Positions 9,218 through 51,030 of a DNA stretch of 64,000 nt are shown piece after piece. The notes under the pieces are model-generated. The model was given only the letters and a program-made list of their open reading frames with translations, did no database searches and had not been told where the DNA came from. The stretch is from Solirubrobacter phytolaccae. GTDB taxonomy: Bacteria; Actinomycetota; Thermoleophilia; Solirubrobacterales; Solirubrobacteraceae. Within the stretch, counting starts at the first letter, position 1. Each line of letters opens with the position of its first letter. Location of the stretch: the NCBI RefSeq assembly GCF_027587195.1, contig NZ_JAPDDP010000038.1, positions 1-64,000 on the forward strand. The letters are read 5' to 3'. A program made the position numbers and the translations under genes.

Positions 9218-9966
9218 TCGGCCACCCCGAGCGCGGCGAGCGCTCGCTCCCGCAGCTCGACCACCGCTTGTTCCGTGCGCGCACGCGGGCGCGCGAGGGG
9301 CACGTCCAGCACCGACACCACGCGCCCCGGCCGCTGGGAGAGCAGCACGACCCGGTCGGCCAGCAACACCGCCTCCTCCACGTCGTGCGTCACCAGCAGC
9401 ACCGTCCGCGGCTCGCGCGCGAGCGCTTCGGCGAGCCACGTCTGCGCCTGCGTGCGCGTGAGCGCGTCGAGCGCGCCGAACGGCTCGTCCAGGCACAGCA
9501 GCGGCCGGCCGGCGAGCAGCGTGCGCAGGAACGCGACGCGCTGGCGCATCCCGCCCGACAGCGTCGCCGGCCGCGCCTTCTCGAAGCCCTCCAGCCCGAA
9601 CCGCACGAAGTGCGCGTGGGCGGCCTCGCGTGCCGCGGCCTTCGACGCGCCTGCCACGCGCAGCGCGAGCGCCGCGTTGTCCAGCGCGCTCAGCCACGGC
9701 AGCAGCCCGTCGCGTTGGGGCATCAGCGCCGCCGCGGGCGCCTCGACCGTCCCGGCGTCGGCGGGTTCGAGCCCGCACACCAGCGACAGCAGGGTCGACT
9801 TGCCGCACCCGCTCGGCCCCACGACCGCGACGAGCTCACCCGCGGCCACCCGCAGGTCTACGCCGTCGAGCGCCACAACGTCCCCGTACGCCTTGCGCAC
9901 GCCGGACACCGACACTCCCGTCCCTACGCGAAGAGGCCCTGACAGAGCCTCGACCTCAGCCACCAT
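9214..9966 (-). CDS. thiZ: ABC transporter ATPase for thiamine pyrimidine precursor
   Basis: 250 residues. Walker A GPSGCGKST at 50-58, Q-loop in LMPQRDGLLPW near 81-91, signature LSGGMRQR at 136-143, Walker B LLCLDEP at 156-162 and an H-loop His in LLVTHDVEEAV. This is the SsuB/TauB/ThiZ branch. It is first in the operon and its ATG (9966) lies just four bases from the end of a TPP aptamer, whose last bases GGAGGGA also serve as the ribosome-binding site. High TPP should therefore shut off initiation directly. Confidence 0.85.
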   Translation of the reverse strand: MVAEVEALSGPLRVGTGVSVSGVRKAYGDVVALDGVDLRVAAGELVAVVGPSGCGKSTLLSLVCGLEPADAGTVEAPAAALMPQRDGLLPWLSALDNAALALRVAGASKAAAREAAHAHFVRFGLEGFEKARPATLSGGMRQRVAFLRTLLAGRPLLCLDEPFGALDALTRTQAQTWLAEALAREPRTVLLVTHDVEEAVLLADRVVLLSQRPGRVVSVLDVPLARPRARTEQAVVELRERALAALGVAE

Positions 9967-9970
9967 TCGC

Positions 9971-10057
9971 TCCCTCCGCGGGCATTACCCCGACCAGGTT
10001 CGAAGGGTCAGCGCCGGAGCGGGGCGCTATCTCAGCCGGGCGTTCCTCCCAGCCCCC
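9971..10057 (-). promoter_or_regulatory. TPP (thiamine pyrophosphate) riboswitch
   Basis: Read on the minus strand, the conserved THI-box blocks occur in order: GGCTGAGA, an optional P3a hairpin (GCGCC/GGCGC), ACCCTTCGAACCTG, GGGTAATGCCCGCGGAGGGA. These match the aptamer core that contacts the pyrimidine and pyrophosphate of TPP. The 3' element GGAGGGA doubles as the Shine-Dalgarno sequence of the ATPase gene. I see no terminator hairpin with a U-tract between aptamer and gene, so translational control is favoured. Confidence 0.92.
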
Positions 10058-10096
10058 CTGTTCAACAAAAACTGCCACGAGAGCGTACCGCCCGCA

Positions 10097-10110: not shown

Positions 10111-10695
10111 ATGTCCAACAAAGTGGCCCTGCTCATCGGTGGCGCGGTCGGCGTCGTGTTCGGCGTCGTCCTGATCACGCTCGACGCCCCGCCCATCGCC
10201 ATTGCGCTGGTGACGGTCCCCTTCCTGGCGTGGTTCGTGGGGTGCAAGCTCTACCTTCGGCACGCGGCGGCTCACGCCGTGCGCAAGGCGCTGCTGCGCC
10301 ACGTCGATCCCACGGCGACCGCGCCCGCCGGCGCGCAGCCCGCGGACAACCAGCTGATCCGGCGCCTGAACGCCACGTTCGACTGGGAGGTGGCCCGCCC
10401 GCTGATCACGTCGGACTTCACGATGGTCGACGTGCGCGGCCGCCGCTTCAACCAGAGCATCTACAAGCGCTCGCTGGCGGTCTACGAGTCCGCCTTCTCG
10501 CAGATCGAGAACCAGATCGAGGAGCTTTACGCGGACCCGCACGAGCCGGACGTGTTCCATGCGCGGGAGCGGCTGGTCGGCCGGCCGCACCGCGGGCCGG
10601 ACCTCGACGCCACGACGTGGTCACGCTACGTGCTCACCCCCGACGGCCAGCAGGTGCGCCAGGTCGAGTGCACCGCCGTGGTCAGCGTCGCCTGA
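10111..10695 (+). CDS. Membrane-anchored NTF2-like protein, paralogue 1
   Basis: 194 residues. Two N-terminal hydrophobic helices (VALLIGGAVGVVFGVVLIT and IAIALVTVPFLAWFVG) are followed by a domain of about 130 residues with the pattern FDWEVARPLITSDFTMVD and a C-terminal WSRYVLTPDGQQVRQ. The same pattern recurs in the next two genes, which suggests a SnoaL/NTF2-like cone fold. Catalytic residues are not evident. The stop overlaps the next ATG as TGATG. It is the only one of the three paralogues with membrane helices. Confidence 0.7.
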   Translation: MSNKVALLIGGAVGVVFGVVLITLDAPPIAIALVTVPFLAWFVGCKLYLRHAAAHAVRKALLRHVDPTATAPAGAQPADNQLIRRLNATFDWEVARPLITSDFTMVDVRGRRFNQSIYKRSLAVYESAFSQIENQIEELYADPHEPDVFHARERLVGRPHRGPDLDATTWSRYVLTPDGQQVRQVECTAVVSVA

Positions 10696-11126
10696 TGCGC
10701 CCGGAGGACGTGCGCGACGCGTTCGCGTGGATGGAGACCGTCGTGGCGCTGCCGCCGGCGACCGCGGTCGAGGTCGAGTGCGAGCTCGTCCACCGGCTCT
10801 ACACCACGCGTGAGTGGGAGCGCACGCGCCCGATGCTCGCCGACGACTTCGTGCTGGTCGGCCCGACCGGCCGCGCGGGCCTCGAGGCGCTGCGGCGCAC
10901 GAACGAGCTGATGGCGGACGCCTACGAGGACCTGCAGGCGGAGATCGAGACGATCGTGTCCGACCCGGCCGCGCCGGACGTCCTCTACGTGCGTGACCAC
11001 TCGCGTGGACGCCCGCGGGACGGCTCGCCGGCGCTCGACGTGCGCGCCTGGTCGCGCGTCGTCCTGACCGCCGACGGTACGCAGGTGCGCGAGCTCGGGC
11101 CCTCCAGCGTCATCCAGTCCGCTTGA
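10695..11126 (+). CDS. Soluble NTF2-like protein, paralogue 2
   Basis: 143 residues. Shares with its neighbours the block TREWERTRPMLADDFVLVG, a long helical linker, a VLYVRDHSRG strand and the C-terminal WSRVVLTADGTQVRELGPSSVI. The fold looks SnoaL/NTF2-like; no catalytic site can be assigned. It is translationally coupled on both sides by TGATG overlaps, implying equal expression and perhaps a heteromeric complex with its paralogues. Confidence 0.7.
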   Translation: MRPEDVRDAFAWMETVVALPPATAVEVECELVHRLYTTREWERTRPMLADDFVLVGPTGRAGLEALRRTNELMADAYEDLQAEIETIVSDPAAPDVLYVRDHSRGRPRDGSPALDVRAWSRVVLTADGTQVRELGPSSVIQSA

Positions 11127-11518
11127 TGCTCCCGCCCGAGCACGCCGTCCCGGTCGAGAGCCCGTTGATCGAGCGCTTCTACGCCGCGCACGACTGGTCG
11201 GTGACCGCGACGATGCTCGCGCCCGACTTCGTCTGGATCGACCAGGACGGCAAGGCCCGCAAGGCCAAGCACCTGCGCTCGCAGTCCCAGTGGTTCGAGG
11301 CCGCCTACGACAACGCGCACGCCACGCTGGACGCGGTCGTGGCCGACCTCGGCGAGCCGTCCGTGCTCTACGTCCGGGGCGTCACGCACGCCCGCGCGCG
11401 CAATCGCTTCCAGGAGCCGGCGCGGATCGACGTCGCCGTCTGGACGCGGTTCGTGATCACCTCCGACGGGACCCGGATCCGCCAGATCGGGCCATCCAGC
11501 GTCATCGACGGCGCATGA
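11126..11518 (+). CDS. Soluble NTF2-like protein, paralogue 3
   Basis: 130 residues from ATG 11126, which overlaps the previous TGA. The core HDWSVTATMLAPDFVWID and the tail WTRFVITSDGTRIRQIGPSSVI align with paralogues 1 and 2. The N-terminus is shortened. It is followed 19 bases later by the nucleotide cyclase gene, which has its own leaderless -10 box. Confidence 0.7.
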   Translation: MLPPEHAVPVESPLIERFYAAHDWSVTATMLAPDFVWIDQDGKARKAKHLRSQSQWFEAAYDNAHATLDAVVADLGEPSVLYVRGVTHARARNRFQEPARIDVAVWTRFVITSDGTRIRQIGPSSVIDGA

Positions 11519-11537: not shown

Positions 11538-12638
11538 ATGGACTGGGACGCCGAAGGACTCTTAGAGGGCCTCGAGGACGACCGCGCGCGGGATGCGCGG
11601 CGCCGCCTGCTCGACGAGCTGCACACGCAGGGGATGGGCCTGGAGGAGCTACGGCGCGTGGTCGCCGAGGACAAGCTCGTGCTCGCGCCGGTCGCTCGCG
11701 CGCTGAGCTCGGAGGCGCGCTACACCGCCGGGGAGATCGCCGAGCAGGCGAACATCGAGCTCGAGATGTTCACCGCCAGCCGGCGCGCGCTCGGGTTGCC
11801 CGTGCCCGGCGACGAGGAGCGCGTGTACGGCGAGAAGGACCTCGAGGCCGCGCGGCTGGGCACCGCGCACCGGCAGGCGGGCTTCGCCGACGAGGACGCG
11901 CTGGAGGTCGCCCGCGTGCTCGGCCAGGGCATGGCGCGCTACGCGGAGTCCACCAAGGCGCTCGTCGCGCGCACGTTCCTGGAGCCGGGGCTGGACGAGT
12001 ACGAGCTCGCGCACCGCTACCGGGTCGTGGCAGAGCAACTGATGCCGCTTGCCGGCCCGTGGCTGGAGCACGTGTTCGCGCTCCACTTGCAGCAGGTGCT
12101 GCGCAGCGACGCGATCACGCAGGAGCAGCGGCGCTCCGGCAAGGTCGACGACACCCAGCAGGCCGTCGTCGCGTTCGCGGACCTCGTCGGCTTCACCGAG
12201 CTGGGCGAGCAGCTGCCGGTAGAGGAGCTCGGCAGCGTCGCCGGGCGCCTCTCGCACCTGGCGGGTGAGGCGCTCGAGCCGTCCGTGAAGCTCGTGAAGC
12301 TGATCGGCGACGCGGTGATGCTCGTCTCGCCCGAGCCCGGGCCGATGGTCGAGAGCACGCTGCGGCTGGTGGAGATCGCCGAGCGCGACGCCGGCTACCC
12401 GCCGCTGCGGGCGGGCGTGGCGTGCGGTCAGGCCGTGCACCGCTGGGGCGACTGGTTCGGCACGCCCGTGAACCTGGCGAGCCGCCTGACCGCGCGGGCC
12501 CGCCCGTCGACGGTGCTTGTCTCGGCCGAAGTGCGCGACGGGATCGACGGCGCGCCCTTTGAGTTCTCCGACGCGGGCAAGAAGAAGCTCAAGGGCTTCT
12601 CCGCGCCCGTGCACGCGTTCAGAGCTCGGCGCGCCTGA
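11538..12638 (+). CDS. Class III adenylate/guanylate cyclase with Rv1264-like regulatory domain
   Basis: 366 residues. The helical N-terminal half (about 1-195) resembles the autoinhibitory pH-sensing domain of mycobacterial Rv1264. The catalytic domain follows: metal Asp215 in FADLVGFT, substrate Lys254 and metal Asp258 in VKLIGDAVM, and the transition-state pair Asn312/Arg316 in PVNLASRL. All core residues are present, so the enzyme is probably active as a homodimer making cAMP from ATP. It overlaps the convergent HAD gene by 20 bases. A related cyclase with a MerR domain lies at 48024. Confidence 0.85.
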   Translation: MDWDAEGLLEGLEDDRARDARRRLLDELHTQGMGLEELRRVVAEDKLVLAPVARALSSEARYTAGEIAEQANIELEMFTASRRALGLPVPGDEERVYGEKDLEAARLGTAHRQAGFADEDALEVARVLGQGMARYAESTKALVARTFLEPGLDEYELAHRYRVVAEQLMPLAGPWLEHVFALHLQQVLRSDAITQEQRRSGKVDDTQQAVVAFADLVGFTELGEQLPVEELGSVAGRLSHLAGEALEPSVKLVKLIGDAVMLVSPEPGPMVESTLRLVEIAERDAGYPPLRAGVACGQAVHRWGDWFGTPVNLASRLTARARPSTVLVSAEVRDGIDGAPFEFSDAGKKKLKGFSAPVHAFRARRA

Positions 12639-46191: not shown

Positions 46192-46417
46192 GAACCGGCG
46201 GCCGGGGACTGGACACCCCGGAGTGTTGGGCAAGCTAGCGGCATCTGGTGTCTGCAACAACGAAGAACGGGTAATCGTGACGATTCTGTTGGTCGCGAGT
46301 CGCAGTTCGCGTTGCCACTTTGTGTAGTGTCAACCTCGGGTAGAGGCTTAGACACATCAGATGACGCTGCCTAAGGTACCTTCCGCTACATACACGTTCG
46401 ATAAGGAGTTGCTTGGG

Positions 46418-46912
46418 ATGGCAGACGATGGCTTCCGCGACCGGGTGTCGCGGCAAGGCGAGGAAGCGCTCGGCAAGCTCGCGACGGACCTGCTCGAGAA
46501 CCCGCTGGTCAACTCTGCAATCACGCGTGCATTCTCCGCTCGCGAAAAGGCGGTGCAGGCGCAGGAGGCCGCGATGGGCGCGCTCAACCTGCCGTCGGCC
46601 GCGGACATCGACCGGCTGACGCGCCGGCTGCGCACCGTGAGCACGCGGCTCGAGGGCATCGAGGAGTCGATCGACCGCCTGCAGGACGGCGTCGACAAGC
46701 TCTCCGCCAAGCTCGGCAGCGAAGCCGCGCTCGTCGAGCGCCTGGCCGCGCTGGAGGGCCAGCTGTCCAAGCTCACCCACGACGTCTCGCACGTGTCGGA
46801 CGCGATCGACGCGGTCCCGCCGCCCGTTCCGCGCGAGCAGGAGCGGCTGGCGGTCGACACGCCAACACCGAAACCCGCCCGCAAGCGCGCGGCAGCGAAG
46901 AAGAAGTCCTAA
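46418..46912 (+). CDS. Phasin-like coiled-coil protein
   Basis: 164 residues from ATG 46418, chosen because AAGGAG lies 9 bases upstream; a longer frame from 46361 lacks an RBS. Helical throughout: NPLVNSAITRAFSAREKAV, then a long coiled coil (RRLRTVSTRLEGIEESIDRLQDGVDKLSAKLGS) and a basic tail RKRAAAKKKS. Resembles PHA granule-associated phasins or segregation-type coiled-coil proteins. Forms a pair with the downstream AKP-tailed protein. Confidence 0.7.
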   Translation: MADDGFRDRVSRQGEEALGKLATDLLENPLVNSAITRAFSAREKAVQAQEAAMGALNLPSAADIDRLTRRLRTVSTRLEGIEESIDRLQDGVDKLSAKLGSEAALVERLAALEGQLSKLTHDVSHVSDAIDAVPPPVPREQERLAVDTPTPKPARKRAAAKKKS

Positions 46913-46928
46913 TAAGGTTCGTGTGAAT

Positions 46929-47579
46929 ATGAGCAAGAAGGACAAGGACAAGAAGAAGAAGGACAAGAAGGGCGCCGACGATCCCGTCGCCGCTCTGCGC
47001 GCCGCCGTCGAGAGCACGCTTCGTGCTTCCGCAGAAGGCGCCAATGTGACCCGCGAGCGCACGCGCGAGATCGTCGAGGAGATCGCCGCCGCGGCCGGCC
47101 GGGTCCGTCACACCCTCGAGGACCTGCGCGTCCTCGACGAGGTGAAGAGCCTGCGCAGCGAGGTCGAGGCGCTCGCCTCCCGGGTCGCGTCGCTCGAGAT
47201 CCGGCCGAAGGGGGCCAGCAAGCCGGAGGCGGTCACGCCGACGGTGCCGGCGAAGAAGCCGGCAGCCGCGCGCAAGCGCAGCGCCGCCCGCAAGCCGGCG
47301 GCCGCGAAGAAGCCGGCGCCCGCGAAGCCCAAGCCCGTCGCCAAGAAGCCGGTGGCGGCGAAGCCCGCCGCAGCGGCGAAGAAGCCCGCGGCGGTCGCCA
47401 AGAAGCCGGCCGCGGCGGCCAAGAAGCCGGCGGCCGCGCGCAAGCGCACCCCGGCCCGCAAGCCGACGGCCCCGGCGAAGAAGCCGGCCGCCGTGACCAA
47501 GCCCGTGGCGAGCACCCCGGTGGCGCCCGCCCCCGCGAAGCCCACGCCCGCTCCGCCCAAGCCCACCCCGTCCTCCTAG
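46929..47579 (+). CDS. Histone-H1-like protein with AKP-repeat tail
   Basis: 216 residues from ATG 46929 (GTG 46923 possible). A Lys/Asp-rich start (KKDKDKKKKDKKGADD), a phasin-like coiled-coil of about 80 residues (DDPVAALRAAVESTL then TREIVEEIAAAAGRV), then about 110 residues of AAKKPA/ARKP/APAK repeats. The tail resembles eukaryotic H1 and bacterial HupB/PhaF-type tails that bind DNA. A PhaF-like role tethering granules to the nucleoid is plausible. Confidence 0.75.
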   Translation: MSKKDKDKKKKDKKGADDPVAALRAAVESTLRASAEGANVTRERTREIVEEIAAAAGRVRHTLEDLRVLDEVKSLRSEVEALASRVASLEIRPKGASKPEAVTPTVPAKKPAAARKRSAARKPAAAKKPAPAKPKPVAKKPVAAKPAAAAKKPAAVAKKPAAAAKKPAAARKRTPARKPTAPAKKPAAVTKPVASTPVAPAPAKPTPAPPKPTPSS

Positions 47580-47581
47580 GC

Positions 47582-48007
47582 ATGAGCGTCTCGTTCGAGT
47601 CCGCCAAAGAGCTGCGCGAGGTCATCGACGCGGTCTTCACGATGATGGACTCGGACGAGGAGATGGGGCCCAAGCTGCGGGATGCCGACACGCCTCAGCA
47701 GTTCGAGTTCAGCGACTTCGACGTCGTCGTCAACATCCGTGCGGCCACCGACGGCGAGGAGGGCAACCTCCACTGGGAGTGGTCCGACGACGTCGACTGG
47801 AAGCCGAAGGTCAAGATGACGATGTCCTCGGAGGTGGCCAACCGCTACTTCCAGGGCAAGGAGAACGTCGCGATGGCCGTCGCGCGGCGCCGGATCAAGA
47901 CGGGCGGGGACATGAAGGCCGCGCTCGACCTGATCCCGCTCACCAAGCCGATCTACGCGCAGTACCGCGACTACCTCGAGCGCGAGAAGCCGCACCTGCT
48001 CGTCTAG
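47582..48007 (+). CDS. SCP2-like sterol/lipid carrier domain protein
   Basis: 141 residues. The single domain shows FSDFDVVVNIRAA, LHWEWSDDVDWKPKVKMTMSSEVANRYFQGKENV and ARRRIKTGGDMKAALDLIPL, the hydrophobic-pocket pattern of SCP2 carrier proteins. It probably binds acyl or sterol-like lipids. It follows the two phasin-like genes by 2 bases, consistent with a granule or lipid-storage context. Confidence 0.8.
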   Translation: MSVSFESAKELREVIDAVFTMMDSDEEMGPKLRDADTPQQFEFSDFDVVVNIRAATDGEEGNLHWEWSDDVDWKPKVKMTMSSEVANRYFQGKENVAMAVARRRIKTGGDMKAALDLIPLTKPIYAQYRDYLEREKPHLLV

Positions 48008-48023: not shown

Positions 48024-49202
48024 ATGGCCGACTCGCTGACCGACGTCGCCCGCGCGCTCTCCGTCTCTCCCGCCACCCTGCGCCGCTGGGTGGCGGAGGG
48101 GATCGTGCCGCTGCGGGACGGCGAGTGGACGCCGGCGGCGCTCGCGCAGGCCCGGATCGTCGCGCGCATGCGGGCGCGTGGGCACTCCCTCGCGCAGCTC
48201 CGCGGCGCGGCCAAGCAGGGCCGGCTCGCCTACGGCTACCTGGAGGACCTGTTCGGCGACGAGGGCGGCGGTGCGCCGCGGACGCTCGAGGAAGCGGTCG
48301 AGGAGACCGGGATGGAGGCGGAGCTGATCCGCCGCATCTGGGCCGCGGCGGGGTTCCCGGCCGCGTCGCTGGAGGCGCTGAGCGACGATGACGTCGCGCT
48401 GCTGCGCTCGTTGGGCACCGTGCTCGACTCCGGGCTGCCGCTCGTGGCCTTCCTGCAGATCGTGCGCGTGTACGGGCAGGCGCTCGCCCAGATCGCCGAC
48501 GCCGAGGTCAAGCTCTTCCACCTCTTCGTGCACGAGCCGATGATCCGCGACGGCGCGCCCGTGCTGGAGATGGCCGAGGAGCTCAGCGGCCTGGCGAGCG
48601 AGCTGCTGCCGCTGTCGGGGCCGATCATGGAGTCGCTGCACACGCGGCTGCTGCGCCACTTCCTCGAGCAGGACGTCGTCGGGCACCTCGAGCTCGTCGC
48701 CGACGACGCGCAGCTCGGGCGGATGCGCGTCGCGATCTGCTTCGCCGACCTGGCCGGCTACACGCGGCTGACCGAGGAGGTCGGTGAGGAGGAGGCGCTG
48801 GAGGTGGTCGAGCGGTTCGTCGAGCAGGTCACCGAGACGCTCCCCGACGACGCGCGCGTGATCAAGACGATCGGCGACGAGGTGATGGTCGTCGGCACCG
48901 ACCTGGGCGCGCTGGTCGACTGGGCCGTCGGGTTCCAGGCGCTGCAGACCGAGCGCCCGCTGCCGCGGATCGGCCTCCACGCGGGCTCGGTGCTCTACCG
49001 CGACGGCGACTACTACGGCCGCGCCGTCAACCTCGCCTCGCGGGTCGCCGCACGCGCGACGGGCGGCGAGGTGCTCGTGACGCGCGAGGTGCGCGCGGTC
49101 GCGGGTCGCCACCTCGCGTTCCAGCCGATCGGCGAGGTCAAGCTGAAGGGCTTCGACGAGGCCACGGAGCTGTTCCTGGCCCGCTCGGCGGCGGGGAGAT
49201 GA
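48024..49202 (+). CDS. MerR-type HTH fused to class III nucleotide cyclase
   Basis: 392 residues. N-terminal MerR-like winged helix (about 3-70: TDVARALSVSPATLRRWVAEGIV), a helical middle domain (about 85-230) similar to the Rv1264-type regulatory domain, and a cyclase domain with metal Asp242 in FADLAGYT, Lys281, metal Asp285 in IKTIGDEVM, and Asn336/Arg340 in AVNLASR. All catalytic residues are kept. A protein able both to bind DNA and to make cAMP is unusual. ATGA overlap with tilS. Confidence 0.85.
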   Translation: MADSLTDVARALSVSPATLRRWVAEGIVPLRDGEWTPAALAQARIVARMRARGHSLAQLRGAAKQGRLAYGYLEDLFGDEGGGAPRTLEEAVEETGMEAELIRRIWAAAGFPAASLEALSDDDVALLRSLGTVLDSGLPLVAFLQIVRVYGQALAQIADAEVKLFHLFVHEPMIRDGAPVLEMAEELSGLASELLPLSGPIMESLHTRLLRHFLEQDVVGHLELVADDAQLGRMRVAICFADLAGYTRLTEEVGEEEALEVVERFVEQVTETLPDDARVIKTIGDEVMVVGTDLGALVDWAVGFQALQTERPLPRIGLHAGSVLYRDGDYYGRAVNLASRVAARATGGEVLVTREVRAVAGRHLAFQPIGEVKLKGFDEATELFLARSAAGR

Positions 49203-50488
49203 CCCGGCGCGGCGAGGGCGAGGCGGGCGGCGGCGAGGCGCGCGAGCGCGGCCCGGTGGCGGGCGGGCACGACTCGCATCGCGCGGCGAACGGCGTGGCC
49301 GACTCGGTTGAGGCGCGCGTCGCCGCGACCGGCCTGCTCGCCGGCCCCGTCGTCGTGCTCCTCTCCGGCGGGCGCGACTCCGTCTGCCTGCTCGACCTCG
49401 CCGTGCGGCTCGCCGGGCCCGTCAGCGCGCTGCACGTCAACTACGGGTTGCGCGACGCGGCCGACGCCGACGAGGCGCACTGCGTCGCGCTGTGCGAGCG
49501 GCTCGGCGTGCCCCTGGTCGTGCGCCGGGCGGGTGCGCCCGCCGGCAACGTGCAGGCCTGGGCGCGGGACGTGAGGTACGCGGCGGCCCACGCGCTCGAC
49601 GGCACGATCGCCACCGGCCACACGGCGACCGACCAGGCCGAGACGGTGCTCTACCGGCTGGTCTCCTCGCCGGGGCGGCGGGCGCTCCTGGGGATGGCGC
49701 CCCGCCGCGGGCGCGTGGTCCGGCCGTTGCTCGGCGTCACGCGGGCCGAGACCGCCGCCTACTGCGCCGAGCGCGAGCTGCCGTACGTCGACGACGCGAC
49801 CAACGCGACCTCCGCTCGGGGCCGCATCCGTGAGATCCTGGAGCTGCACCCGGCGGCGGAGGCCAACGTCGCGAGCACGCTGGACCAGCTGCGCGACGAG
49901 GCGGAGGTGCTCGACGCGCTGATCGACCCCGACGCCGACCTCACGACGCTCCCGCCCGCGCTCGCCCGGCTCACCGTGCAGCACGTGGTCGGTGCCGCGC
50001 CCGCCCGGTACATGGACGAGATCCTCGCCCTGGCCTGGCGGGGCGGGACCGGCCACGTCGATCTTCCGGGTGCGCGGGTGACCGTCGAGTACGGGCGGGT
50101 GCGTCTCGCCTCGGAGACGGCCGCTCCGGAGCCGGCGACGCTTGCCGTGCCCGGCCGGGTCGCGTTCGGCGCGGGGGAGCTGACGTGCGAGGTTGGCGCG
50201 TTCGACCTCGCGGACGGGACGCTCGCCGCCGACGCGCTCGCCCCGGCGCTCCAGGTACGGGCCTGGCGGCCCGGCGACCGGATGCGGCCGCTGGGGCTCG
50301 ACGGCACGAAATCCCTGCAGGACCTGTTCACGGACCGCAAGGTGCCCACGGGCGCTCGCCACCAGCTCCCCGTGGTGGTCTCGAACGGCGAGATCGCGTG
50401 GGTCCCGGGCGTCGCGACCGGTGCACGATTTCGTGTAAACGCGGCCACGAAGCTCCACGTTCGCCTGCAATGGCATCCCGGGTCTTAG
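49199..50488 (+). CDS. tilS: tRNA(Ile)-lysidine synthase
   Basis: 429 residues. PP-loop SGGRDS at 56-61, then GHTATDQAETVLYRL, typical of TilS; residues about 210-430 give the C-terminal substrate domain (WRPGDRMRPLGLDGTKSLQDLFTDRKVP). It adds lysine to C34 of tRNA-Ile2 so AUA is read as Ile. The first 35 residues are low-complexity and may not be translated if an internal start is used. It heads the tilS-hpt-ftsH housekeeping run. Confidence 0.92.
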   Translation: MTRRGEGEAGGGEARERGPVAGGHDSHRAANGVADSVEARVAATGLLAGPVVVLLSGGRDSVCLLDLAVRLAGPVSALHVNYGLRDAADADEAHCVALCERLGVPLVVRRAGAPAGNVQAWARDVRYAAAHALDGTIATGHTATDQAETVLYRLVSSPGRRALLGMAPRRGRVVRPLLGVTRAETAAYCAERELPYVDDATNATSARGRIREILELHPAAEANVASTLDQLRDEAEVLDALIDPDADLTTLPPALARLTVQHVVGAAPARYMDEILALAWRGGTGHVDLPGARVTVEYGRVRLASETAAPEPATLAVPGRVAFGAGELTCEVGAFDLADGTLAADALAPALQVRAWRPGDRMRPLGLDGTKSLQDLFTDRKVPTGARHQLPVVVSNGEIAWVPGVATGARFRVNAATKLHVRLQWHPGS

Positions 50489-50491
50489 ACT
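50486..50491 (+). promoter_or_regulatory. Leaderless-type -10 box (TAGACT) of hpt
   Basis: Its TAG is the tilS stop codon; 8 bases upstream of GTG 50500. Confidence 0.5.
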
Positions 50492-50499
50492 GCGGCGGC

Positions 50500-51030
50500 G
50501 TGAGCGAAGAGATCGGCGAGATCCTCGTCCAAGCTGACGAGCTGCAGCACAAGATCAAGCAGATGGCGGAGGAGATCACCCGCGACTACGACGGGAAGAG
50601 CCTGCTGCTGATCGGCGTCCTCAAGGGCGCCGTGCTGTTCCTGGCGGACCTGATGCGCCACCTCGACGTCAGCTGCGAGATCGACTTCATGGCGGTCTCC
50701 TCGTACGGGTCCTCGACCGAGTCGAGTGGCGTCGTGCGCATCCTCAAGGACCTGGACGCGCCGCTCGAGGGCCGTCACGTGCTGGTCGTCGAGGACATCG
50801 TGGACAGCGGTCTGACACTTCAGTACCTGCTCCGCACGCTCGAAGCGCGCGGGCCGGCGAGCCTCGAGGTGTGCGCGCTGCTGACCAAGCCGAGCCGCCG
50901 CAGCGTGGACCTGCCCGTCCGTTACACCGGCTTCGAGATCCCTGACAAGTTCGCCATCGGCTACGGCCTGGACTACGCGGAGCGCTACCGCGGGCTGCCC
51001 TATGTGGCCGCCCTCACCCTCACCGACTGA
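50500..51030 (+). CDS. hpt: Hypoxanthine phosphoribosyltransferase
   Basis: 176 residues from GTG 50500, the start indicated by the leaderless -10 box. PRPP-binding loop VLVVEDIVDSGLTLQYL, LLIGVLKGAVLFLADL and SSYGSSTESSGVVRI hood loop. Converts hypoxanthine and guanine to IMP and GMP with PRPP in purine salvage. The tilS-hpt-ftsH order is widely conserved in bacteria. Confidence 0.95.
   Translation: MSEEIGEILVQADELQHKIKQMAEEITRDYDGKSLLLIGVLKGAVLFLADLMRHLDVSCEIDFMAVSSYGSSTESSGVVRILKDLDAPLEGRHVLVVEDIVDSGLTLQYLLRTLEARGPASLEVCALLTKPSRRSVDLPVRYTGFEIPDKFAIGYGLDYAERYRGLPYVAALTLTD

What the first reader, a model, noticed from the sequence alone, without database searches (positions are those of the whole stretch)
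48024..49202. MerR DNA-binding domain fused to an intact nucleotide cyclase
A MerR-type winged helix, a Rv1264-like regulatory domain and a cyclase with all catalytic residues occur in one protein. A regulator that both binds DNA and makes cAMP (or moonlights as a DNA-tethered cyclase) would be a new signalling design. A cyclase lacking the MerR part but with the same middle domain lies at 11538 for comparison.
Basis: partly seen in the sequence, partly recalled or inferred. Interest (0 to 1): 0.75.

Follow-up and report, generated by a model that had tools for sequence, protein, structure and literature searches.

The report
Adenylate cyclase with MerR DNA-binding head
A soil-bacterium gene joins a gene-switch type DNA-binding module to an apparently intact enzyme that makes the messenger cAMP; the module is conserved across a whole bacterial order, and the enzyme's known pH-sensing part (as in a tuberculosis enzyme) turns out to be built from the same kind of DNA-binding fold.

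Summary
48024-49202(+) encodes 392 aa with MerR_1 (4-63), Ad_Cy_reg (36-213) and Guanylate_cyc (235-384), all above Pfam cut-offs. The class III catalytic residues are invariant in 40 relatives. It is a real, old gene: full-length orthologs occur in about 155 of 232 genomes of its order, mostly between an SCP2 gene and tilS-hpt. The same layout occurs, about 30% identical, in other families of the phylum.

(1) The 'Rv1264-like middle domain' is itself a degenerate MerR winged helix: profile and structure searches return Rv1264, then CarH, RacA, CueR, GlnR. So this is tandem MerR domains plus cyclase, and Rv1264's pH-sensing domain is MerR-derived. (2) Only in Solirubrobacterales does the first domain keep DNA-binding chemistry (net charge +4.9; T18, R/K20, R21, W22); in other families it is acidic (-2.2).

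Most likely a soluble adenylyl cyclase that binds DNA through its first winged helix: cAMP synthesis very likely, DNA binding likely but unproven, coupling inferred. HTH-cyclase fusions are already known (LuxR type, Mycobacterium), so this is a new variant. Side find: an undescribed structured RNA upstream of the gene in relatives.

The parts
48024..49202 (+). gene for the 392-aa MerR-MerR'-cyclase protein (stop included)
   Evidence: ORF; Pfam; orthologs in about 155 of 232 genomes of the order
48033..48215 (+). first winged helix (WH1), residues 4-64, canonical MerR_1
   Evidence: Pfam; profile against PDB; model topology; hhalign against 37 genuine MerR domains 98.6%
48069..48095 (+). recognition helix, residues 16-24 (T18, R20, R21, W22)
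   Evidence: helix in model; T18 99%, R21 100%, W22 100% in 87 distinct orthologs, pos. 20 R/K in 79 of 86
48276..48473 (+). second, degenerate MerR-like winged helix (WH2), residues 85-150; core of Ad_Cy_reg
   Evidence: hhalign against MerR 95% with controls under 0.2%; PDB profile hits CarH/CarA/RacA after Rv1264; model of 78-178 matches Rv1264 then MerR-family proteins
48561..48701 (+). long transducing helix, residues 180-226, joining WH2 to the cyclase
   Evidence: model; structural match to active-state Rv1264 over 19-389, Z 24.6
48717..49187 (+). class III nucleotide cyclase domain, residues 232-388
   Evidence: Pfam; structure match to Ma1120, Z 24.6, rmsd 1.6
48747..48749 (+). D242, metal-binding Asp 1 (D222 of Rv1264)
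   Evidence: invariant in 40 relatives; alignment to Rv1264; role from established knowledge
48864..48878 (+). K281 (substrate-specifying, K261 of Rv1264) and D285 (metal-binding Asp 2, D265 of Rv1264)
   Evidence: invariant; Rv1264 D265A is catalytically dead (PMC8856561)
49008..49043 (+). D329 (substrate-specifying), N336 and R340 (transition state)
   Evidence: invariant in 40 relatives; assignment by alignment to Rv1264
47582..48007 (+). SCP2-type lipid-carrier gene directly upstream (context)
   Evidence: Pfam SCP2 23.3 bits (cut-off 21.3); neighbour in most relatives
49199..50488 (+). tilS, overlapping the stop codon by 4 bases (ATGA); followed by hpt at about 50485-51030 (context)
   Evidence: Pfam; conserved order SCP2-cyclase-tilS-hpt
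11538..12638 (+). second Ad_Cy_reg cyclase of this genome, without the helix-turn-helix of WH1 (comparison)
   Evidence: Pfam; only these two Ad_Cy_reg proteins in the genome

Best explanation
A soluble, homodimeric Rv1264-type adenylyl cyclase whose regulatory half is made of two MerR-type winged helices. WH2 is degenerate and acidic and acts as the signal-transducing hub onto the long helix and cyclase, as in Rv1264. In Solirubrobacterales WH1 is still a basic MerR recognition module and most likely binds a DNA site, so that cAMP is made by a DNA-bound enzyme and DNA occupancy and cyclase state influence each other. The cAMP would act through the CRP-type receptors of the same genome. Shown by sequence and predicted structure: architecture, fold, conserved active site, constraint on WH1. 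Inferred: catalysis, dimerisation, DNA binding. Speculative: coupling direction and the input signal (pH or a lipid, by analogy with Rv1264 and the neighbouring SCP2 gene).
For: Three Pfam domains in one ORF. Whole model matches the Rv1264 holoenzyme, Z 24.6 over 344 residues. All six catalytic residues invariant. In Solirubrobacterales WH1 has mean net charge +4.9 against -2.2 in other families and +2.8 for genuine MerR domains; W22 and R21 are invariant and position 20 basic. pN/pS in WH1 0.08-0.33, as low as in the cyclase. Orthologs and gene order kept across the order. WH2 is MerR-like. Seven cNMP-binding proteins above cut-off in the genome; three of the ORFs read appear CRP-like, with a C-terminal HTH (by eye).
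Against: The wing is short and lacks the usual GYR motif of MerR proteins. No MerR-type antiparallel dimerisation helix follows WH1 directly; WH2 does. In other families of the phylum WH1 is kept although its DNA-binding residues are gone, so WH1 can serve without DNA. Some Solirubrobacterales have no cyclase gene at this locus. A dyad search upstream found only parts of a structured RNA, not an operator. No experiment.
Confidence: 0.5

Rival explanations
1. A pure adenylyl cyclase in which both winged helices are recycled folds serving only as sensor or dimerisation parts; the basic WH1 of Solirubrobacterales contacts an acidic partner, the cyclase or a membrane or lipid rather than DNA.
For: WH2 shows the fold can be kept without a basic surface (mean charge -3.8 to -4.3). 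In other families WH1 is also acidic and lacks T18, R20 and W22. Rv1264 and the 11538 protein have only part of WH1.
Against: In 87 Solirubrobacterales orthologs precisely the recognition-helix positions are kept (T18, R/K20, R21, W22), and WH1 is more basic than ordinary MerR domains.
Confidence: 0.33
2. Mainly a transcription factor: the cyclase domain binds ATP as a sensor of energy state or pH, and cAMP made is incidental.
For: A DNA-binding head with a dimeric nucleotide-binding body is a plausible one-component regulator; WH1 is as constrained as the cyclase.
Against: Complete conservation of metal, base-specifying and transition-state residues over the family points to selection on catalysis, not only binding.
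Confidence: 0.1
3. Artefact: a chance or assembly-made fusion of a MerR gene and a cyclase gene.
For: None found.
Against: Orthologs in about 155 genomes, several from complete chromosomes, with the same neighbours.
Confidence: 0.01

Closest known systems
Rv1264 of Mycobacterium tuberculosis (pH-sensing class III adenylyl cyclase; PDB 1y10, 1y11, 2ev1-2ev4)
   Same: Ad_Cy_reg region, long transducing helix and cyclase; model matches the active state over residues 19-389; same catalytic residues. Its residues ~59-160 are the same MerR-like fold as WH2.
   Different: Aligns only from residue 19 of this protein on; no complete first winged helix was seen in it, so no DNA-binding head.
MerR family regulators (MerR, CueR, CarH, RacA)
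   Same: WH1 sequence profile and predicted topology; recognition helix of the type TLRRW.
   Different: No effector-binding C-terminus or immediate dimerisation coiled coil; short wing without the GYR motif; the output part is an enzyme.
Cyclase (CHD)+LuxR proteins of Mycobacterium (Rv0386, Rv1358, Rv2488c; PMC3466318)
   Different: LuxR-type HTH instead of MerR; described there as restricted to Mycobacterium among the Actinobacteria studied.
Ad_Cy_reg cyclases without a WH1 HTH (window 11538; L203-L222)
   Same: WH2 + helix + cyclase.
   Different: First winged helix absent or reduced to its second half.

Membership tests
Class III adenylyl cyclase | cyclase homology domain above family cut-off | tested here: met
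   Guanylate_cyc 48.9 bits against 21.9
Class III adenylyl cyclase | two metal-binding Asp, Lys/Asp substrate pair, Asn/Arg transition-state pair | tested here: met
   D242, D285, K281, D329, N336, R340 invariant in 40 relatives
Class III adenylyl cyclase | forms cAMP as a dimer | not testable with these tools
   needs assay
Rv1264 / Ad_Cy_reg cyclases | Ad_Cy_reg regulatory domain followed by cyclase | tested here: met
   45.7 bits against 28.6; structure match Z 24.6 to 1y11
Rv1264 / Ad_Cy_reg cyclases | pH or fatty-acid control through the regulatory domain | not testable with these tools
   oleate in Rv1264 reported in PMC12505454
MerR family | N-terminal MerR_1 winged helix | tested here: met
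   31.9 bits against 21.6; PDB profile hits; model
MerR family | basic recognition helix with the conserved Arg/aromatic positions | tested here: met
   R/K20 in 79 of 86, R21 and W22 invariant in orthologs
MerR family | wing with the GYR motif | tested here: not met
   wing reads PLRDGEWTP; G33 and W35 conserved, no GYR
MerR family | long dimerisation helix right after the winged helix | tested here: not met
   a second winged helix follows
MerR family | DNA binding at an operator | not testable with these tools
   needs assay; no operator-like dyad identified
MerR-like fold for WH2 (residues 85-150) | homology to MerR domains beyond controls | tested here: met
   hhalign 95%, E 7e-9, controls under 0.2%; one relative's WH2 scores 30.1 bits for MerR_1; fold search

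The most novel reading that the evidence does not exclude
A DNA-tethered adenylyl cyclase: cAMP is made at the promoter, and binding to the operator switches the enzyme on or off (or the enzyme's pH or lipid state switches DNA binding), conserved over a whole bacterial order. More broadly, the Rv1264 family arose from MerR transcription factors whose winged helices were recruited as an enzyme regulator.
Probability: 0.3. Interest if true: 0.8.

Novelty: new variant of a known kind. Interest (0 to 1): 0.5.

Why it matters
If the head binds DNA, this is a transcription-factor-like protein whose output is a second messenger, and it gives a natural system to ask whether cAMP can be made and used locally on the chromosome. 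Independently, recognising a MerR winged helix inside the Rv1264 regulatory domain gives that well-studied pH-sensing module an origin and a mechanical model: MerR domains move on a dimer axis to distort DNA, and here a similar movement could be passed down the long helix to the cyclase.

Tried and rejected
Whole-model PDB searches were filled by cyclases and could not test the winged helices, so the middle domain was modelled alone. Operator search by dyad enumeration upstream of orthologs gave a strong signal that proved to be helices of a structured RNA, not an operator. I considered that this RNA might be the leader or target of the cyclase; rejected as obligatory, because the RNA is kept in loci without the cyclase, while the window's genome has the cyclase and no match to the RNA. 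Rfam search for the RNA: nothing at gathering or at E<1 over the element. NCBIfam: no family above cut-off. Paper searches for Rv1264 with MerR or winged helix, and for MerR-cyclase fusions: nothing relevant; the library lacks most subscription papers, including the Rv1264 structure papers, so absence there is weak. The 2004 survey of actinobacterial cyclases (PMC2447327) is held only as abstract and references. Rooted tree: cyclases without WH1 lie nearest the outgroup, which suggests WH1 was gained later, but the outgroup branches are long and the root is not trusted. Fusion artefact: rejected.

Full report
WHAT IS THERE. The ORF at 48024-49202(+) encodes 392 residues. Pfam finds MerR_1 at 4-63, Ad_Cy_reg at 36-213 and Guanylate_cyc at 235-384, each above its curated cut-off. 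By sequence its nearest solved relative is Rv1264 of M. tuberculosis (E 9.7e-28). The AlphaFold model (40 natural relatives, mean pLDDT 91) shows a MerR-like winged helix at 4-64, a second helical module at 85-150, helices 140-175 and 180-226, and a cyclase fold. The model matches the active-state Rv1264 holoenzyme over residues 19-389 (Z 24.6, 344 residues). The gene overlaps tilS by an ATGA and follows an SCP2 gene by 16 bases.

IT IS AN OLD, SELECTED ARCHITECTURE. In 232 genomes of the same order, 185 hold a match at E<=1e-30; by my count of the table about 155 of these are orthologs, nearly all of them running from residue ~4 to ~388 at 42-94% identity (the rest are weaker paralogs). The nearest named relatives are Solirubrobacter species, then Paraconexibacter, Svornostia, Patulibacter and many uncultured Solirubrobacterales. 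Most loci read SCP2, cyclase, tilS, hpt, in that order. Across the phylum 104 of 296 genomes have a relative at E<=1e-10, and many of the better matches cover the first winged helix as well at about 30% identity. Within the genus pN/pS is 0.08-0.33 for WH1, 0.23-0.61 for WH2 and 0.08-0.43 for the cyclase.

THE MIDDLE DOMAIN IS A SECOND, DEGENERATE MERR WINGED HELIX. A profile of residues 82-160 of 24 family members finds in the PDB Rv1264 (1e-12), then CarH (1.1e-3), CarA (0.014) and RacA (0.15) (a designed repeat protein also scores 1e-4, but only by summing five sub-threshold repeats). Against 37 genuine MerR domains from the class, hhalign gives 95% probability, E 7e-9, while reversed, column-shuffled and unrelated segments give under 0.2%. 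WH1 and WH2 match each other at 88%. The one other raised value, WH2 against helix 150-226 at 29%, comes from an 11-column overlap of the two segments. One relative's middle domain (L214) passes MerR_1's own cut-off (30.1 bits against 21.6) over the stretch that Ad_Cy_reg also covers. Modelled alone (residues 78-178, pLDDT 93), it matches Rv1264 first and then an almost unbroken list of MerR-superfamily structures: CarH, NmlR, CueR, RacA, GlnR, TnrA (Z 5-7, modest but consistent). So the Rv1264 regulatory domain contains a MerR-type fold. I found no statement of this in the papers available, but the original structure papers are not in that library.

WHO KEEPS A COMPLETE FIRST WINGED HELIX. 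Three grades exist: complete WH1 (Solirubrobacterales and several other families), only its second half (11538 in this window, Rv1264-like L034, L203, L208, L211, L221), and none (for example L209, L210 and L213) (the grades of several rows were set by eye). On the tree the complete-WH1 rows need only one change, though that branch has support of only 40, and the root is unreliable.

DOES IT BIND DNA? In Solirubrobacterales WH1 is basic (mean +4.9; genuine MerR domains +2.8). In 87 distinct orthologs T18 is 99%, R21 100% and W22 100% conserved, and position 20 is R/K in 79 of 86. In 17 complete-WH1 proteins from other families the mean charge is -2.2, position 20 is mostly not basic and position 22 is Leu. 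This is the pattern expected if DNA binding is present in Solirubrobacterales and absent elsewhere. Against it: the wing is short and lacks the GYR motif, no MerR dimerisation helix follows, and no operator was found. I put DNA binding at about 0.55-0.6.

DOES IT MAKE cAMP? D242, K281, D285, D329, N336 and R340 are invariant in all 40 relatives. The K/D pair is that of ATP-specific enzymes (established knowledge of class III cyclases; Rv1264 D265, here D285, is essential, PMC8856561). The genome has eight class III cyclase domains and seven cNMP-binding proteins above cut-off; the sequences of three look CRP-like by eye. I put cAMP synthesis at about 0.85.

MECHANISM. Shown: architecture, folds, active site, constraint. 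Inferred: homodimer with composite active sites, WH2 and the long helix acting as the switch as in Rv1264, WH1 on DNA. Speculative: the input. Rv1264 carries oleate between regulatory and catalytic domains and Rv2212 is activated by it (PMC12505454); the gene next door encodes an SCP2-type lipid-carrier domain, so a lipid is an attractive guess, pH another.

NOVELTY. Cyclase+HTH fusions are known in Mycobacterium (LuxR type, PMC3466318), and Rv1264-type cyclases are known. A complete MerR head that looks able to bind DNA on such an enzyme, conserved over an order, and the MerR origin of the regulatory domain are new as far as I could search. Hence 'new variant of a known kind'.

SIDE FIND. In many relatives the gap between SCP2 and the cyclase gene holds a promoter-like TTGACA...TAGACC followed by a ~120-nt element with six helices. 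Sixteen of 41 pairs show changes on both sides (7.0 in shuffles), and 96% of cells pair, against 35-55% when slid. No Rfam family matches. A covariance model finds exactly one copy in 24 of 121 genomes of the order, none in the window's genome. Where the cyclase is present at that locus, the RNA sits just upstream of it. None of nine other RNA loci examined has a cyclase match near the RNA, and in six of them tilS follows the RNA within about 0.7 kb. It looks like an independent small-RNA gene.

Noticed in passing
Relatives, between SCP2 and the cyclase gene: e.g. L071:4760-4950, L077:4757-4960, L085:4751-4948, L116:4761-4943: Undescribed structured RNA (~120 nt, six helices, TTGACA promoter-like start, terminator-like 3' hairpin) with strong covariation and no Rfam match; one copy per genome in 24 of 121 genomes of the order, no match in the window's genome.
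   Followed up: partly
L247-L254: Solirubrobacterales that keep the RNA but have no cyclase match beside it; in L248 and L250-L254 tilS follows the RNA within about 0.7 kb, as if the cyclase gene had been cleanly lost.
   Followed up: partly
window 9954-10069 (-): TPP riboswitch above Rfam gathering score (58.8 bits).
   Followed up: no
window 10111-11518 (+): Three consecutive small, similar-looking ORFs before the second Ad_Cy_reg cyclase at 11538; the third is SnoaL_2 by Pfam.
   Followed up: no
window 46361-47579 (+): Two coiled-coil proteins with histone-H1-like AAKKP-rich tails upstream of SCP2; the first is kept near this locus in many relatives.
   Followed up: no
L138 and L140: Records titled 'MAG: Bifidobacterium breve' carry the Solirubrobacterales cyclase ortholog and gene order; the labels look wrong.
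   Followed up: no
L023:1480-2814 (+): A relative with MerR_1, Ad_Cy_reg, cyclase and an extra C-terminal YHS domain.
   Followed up: no
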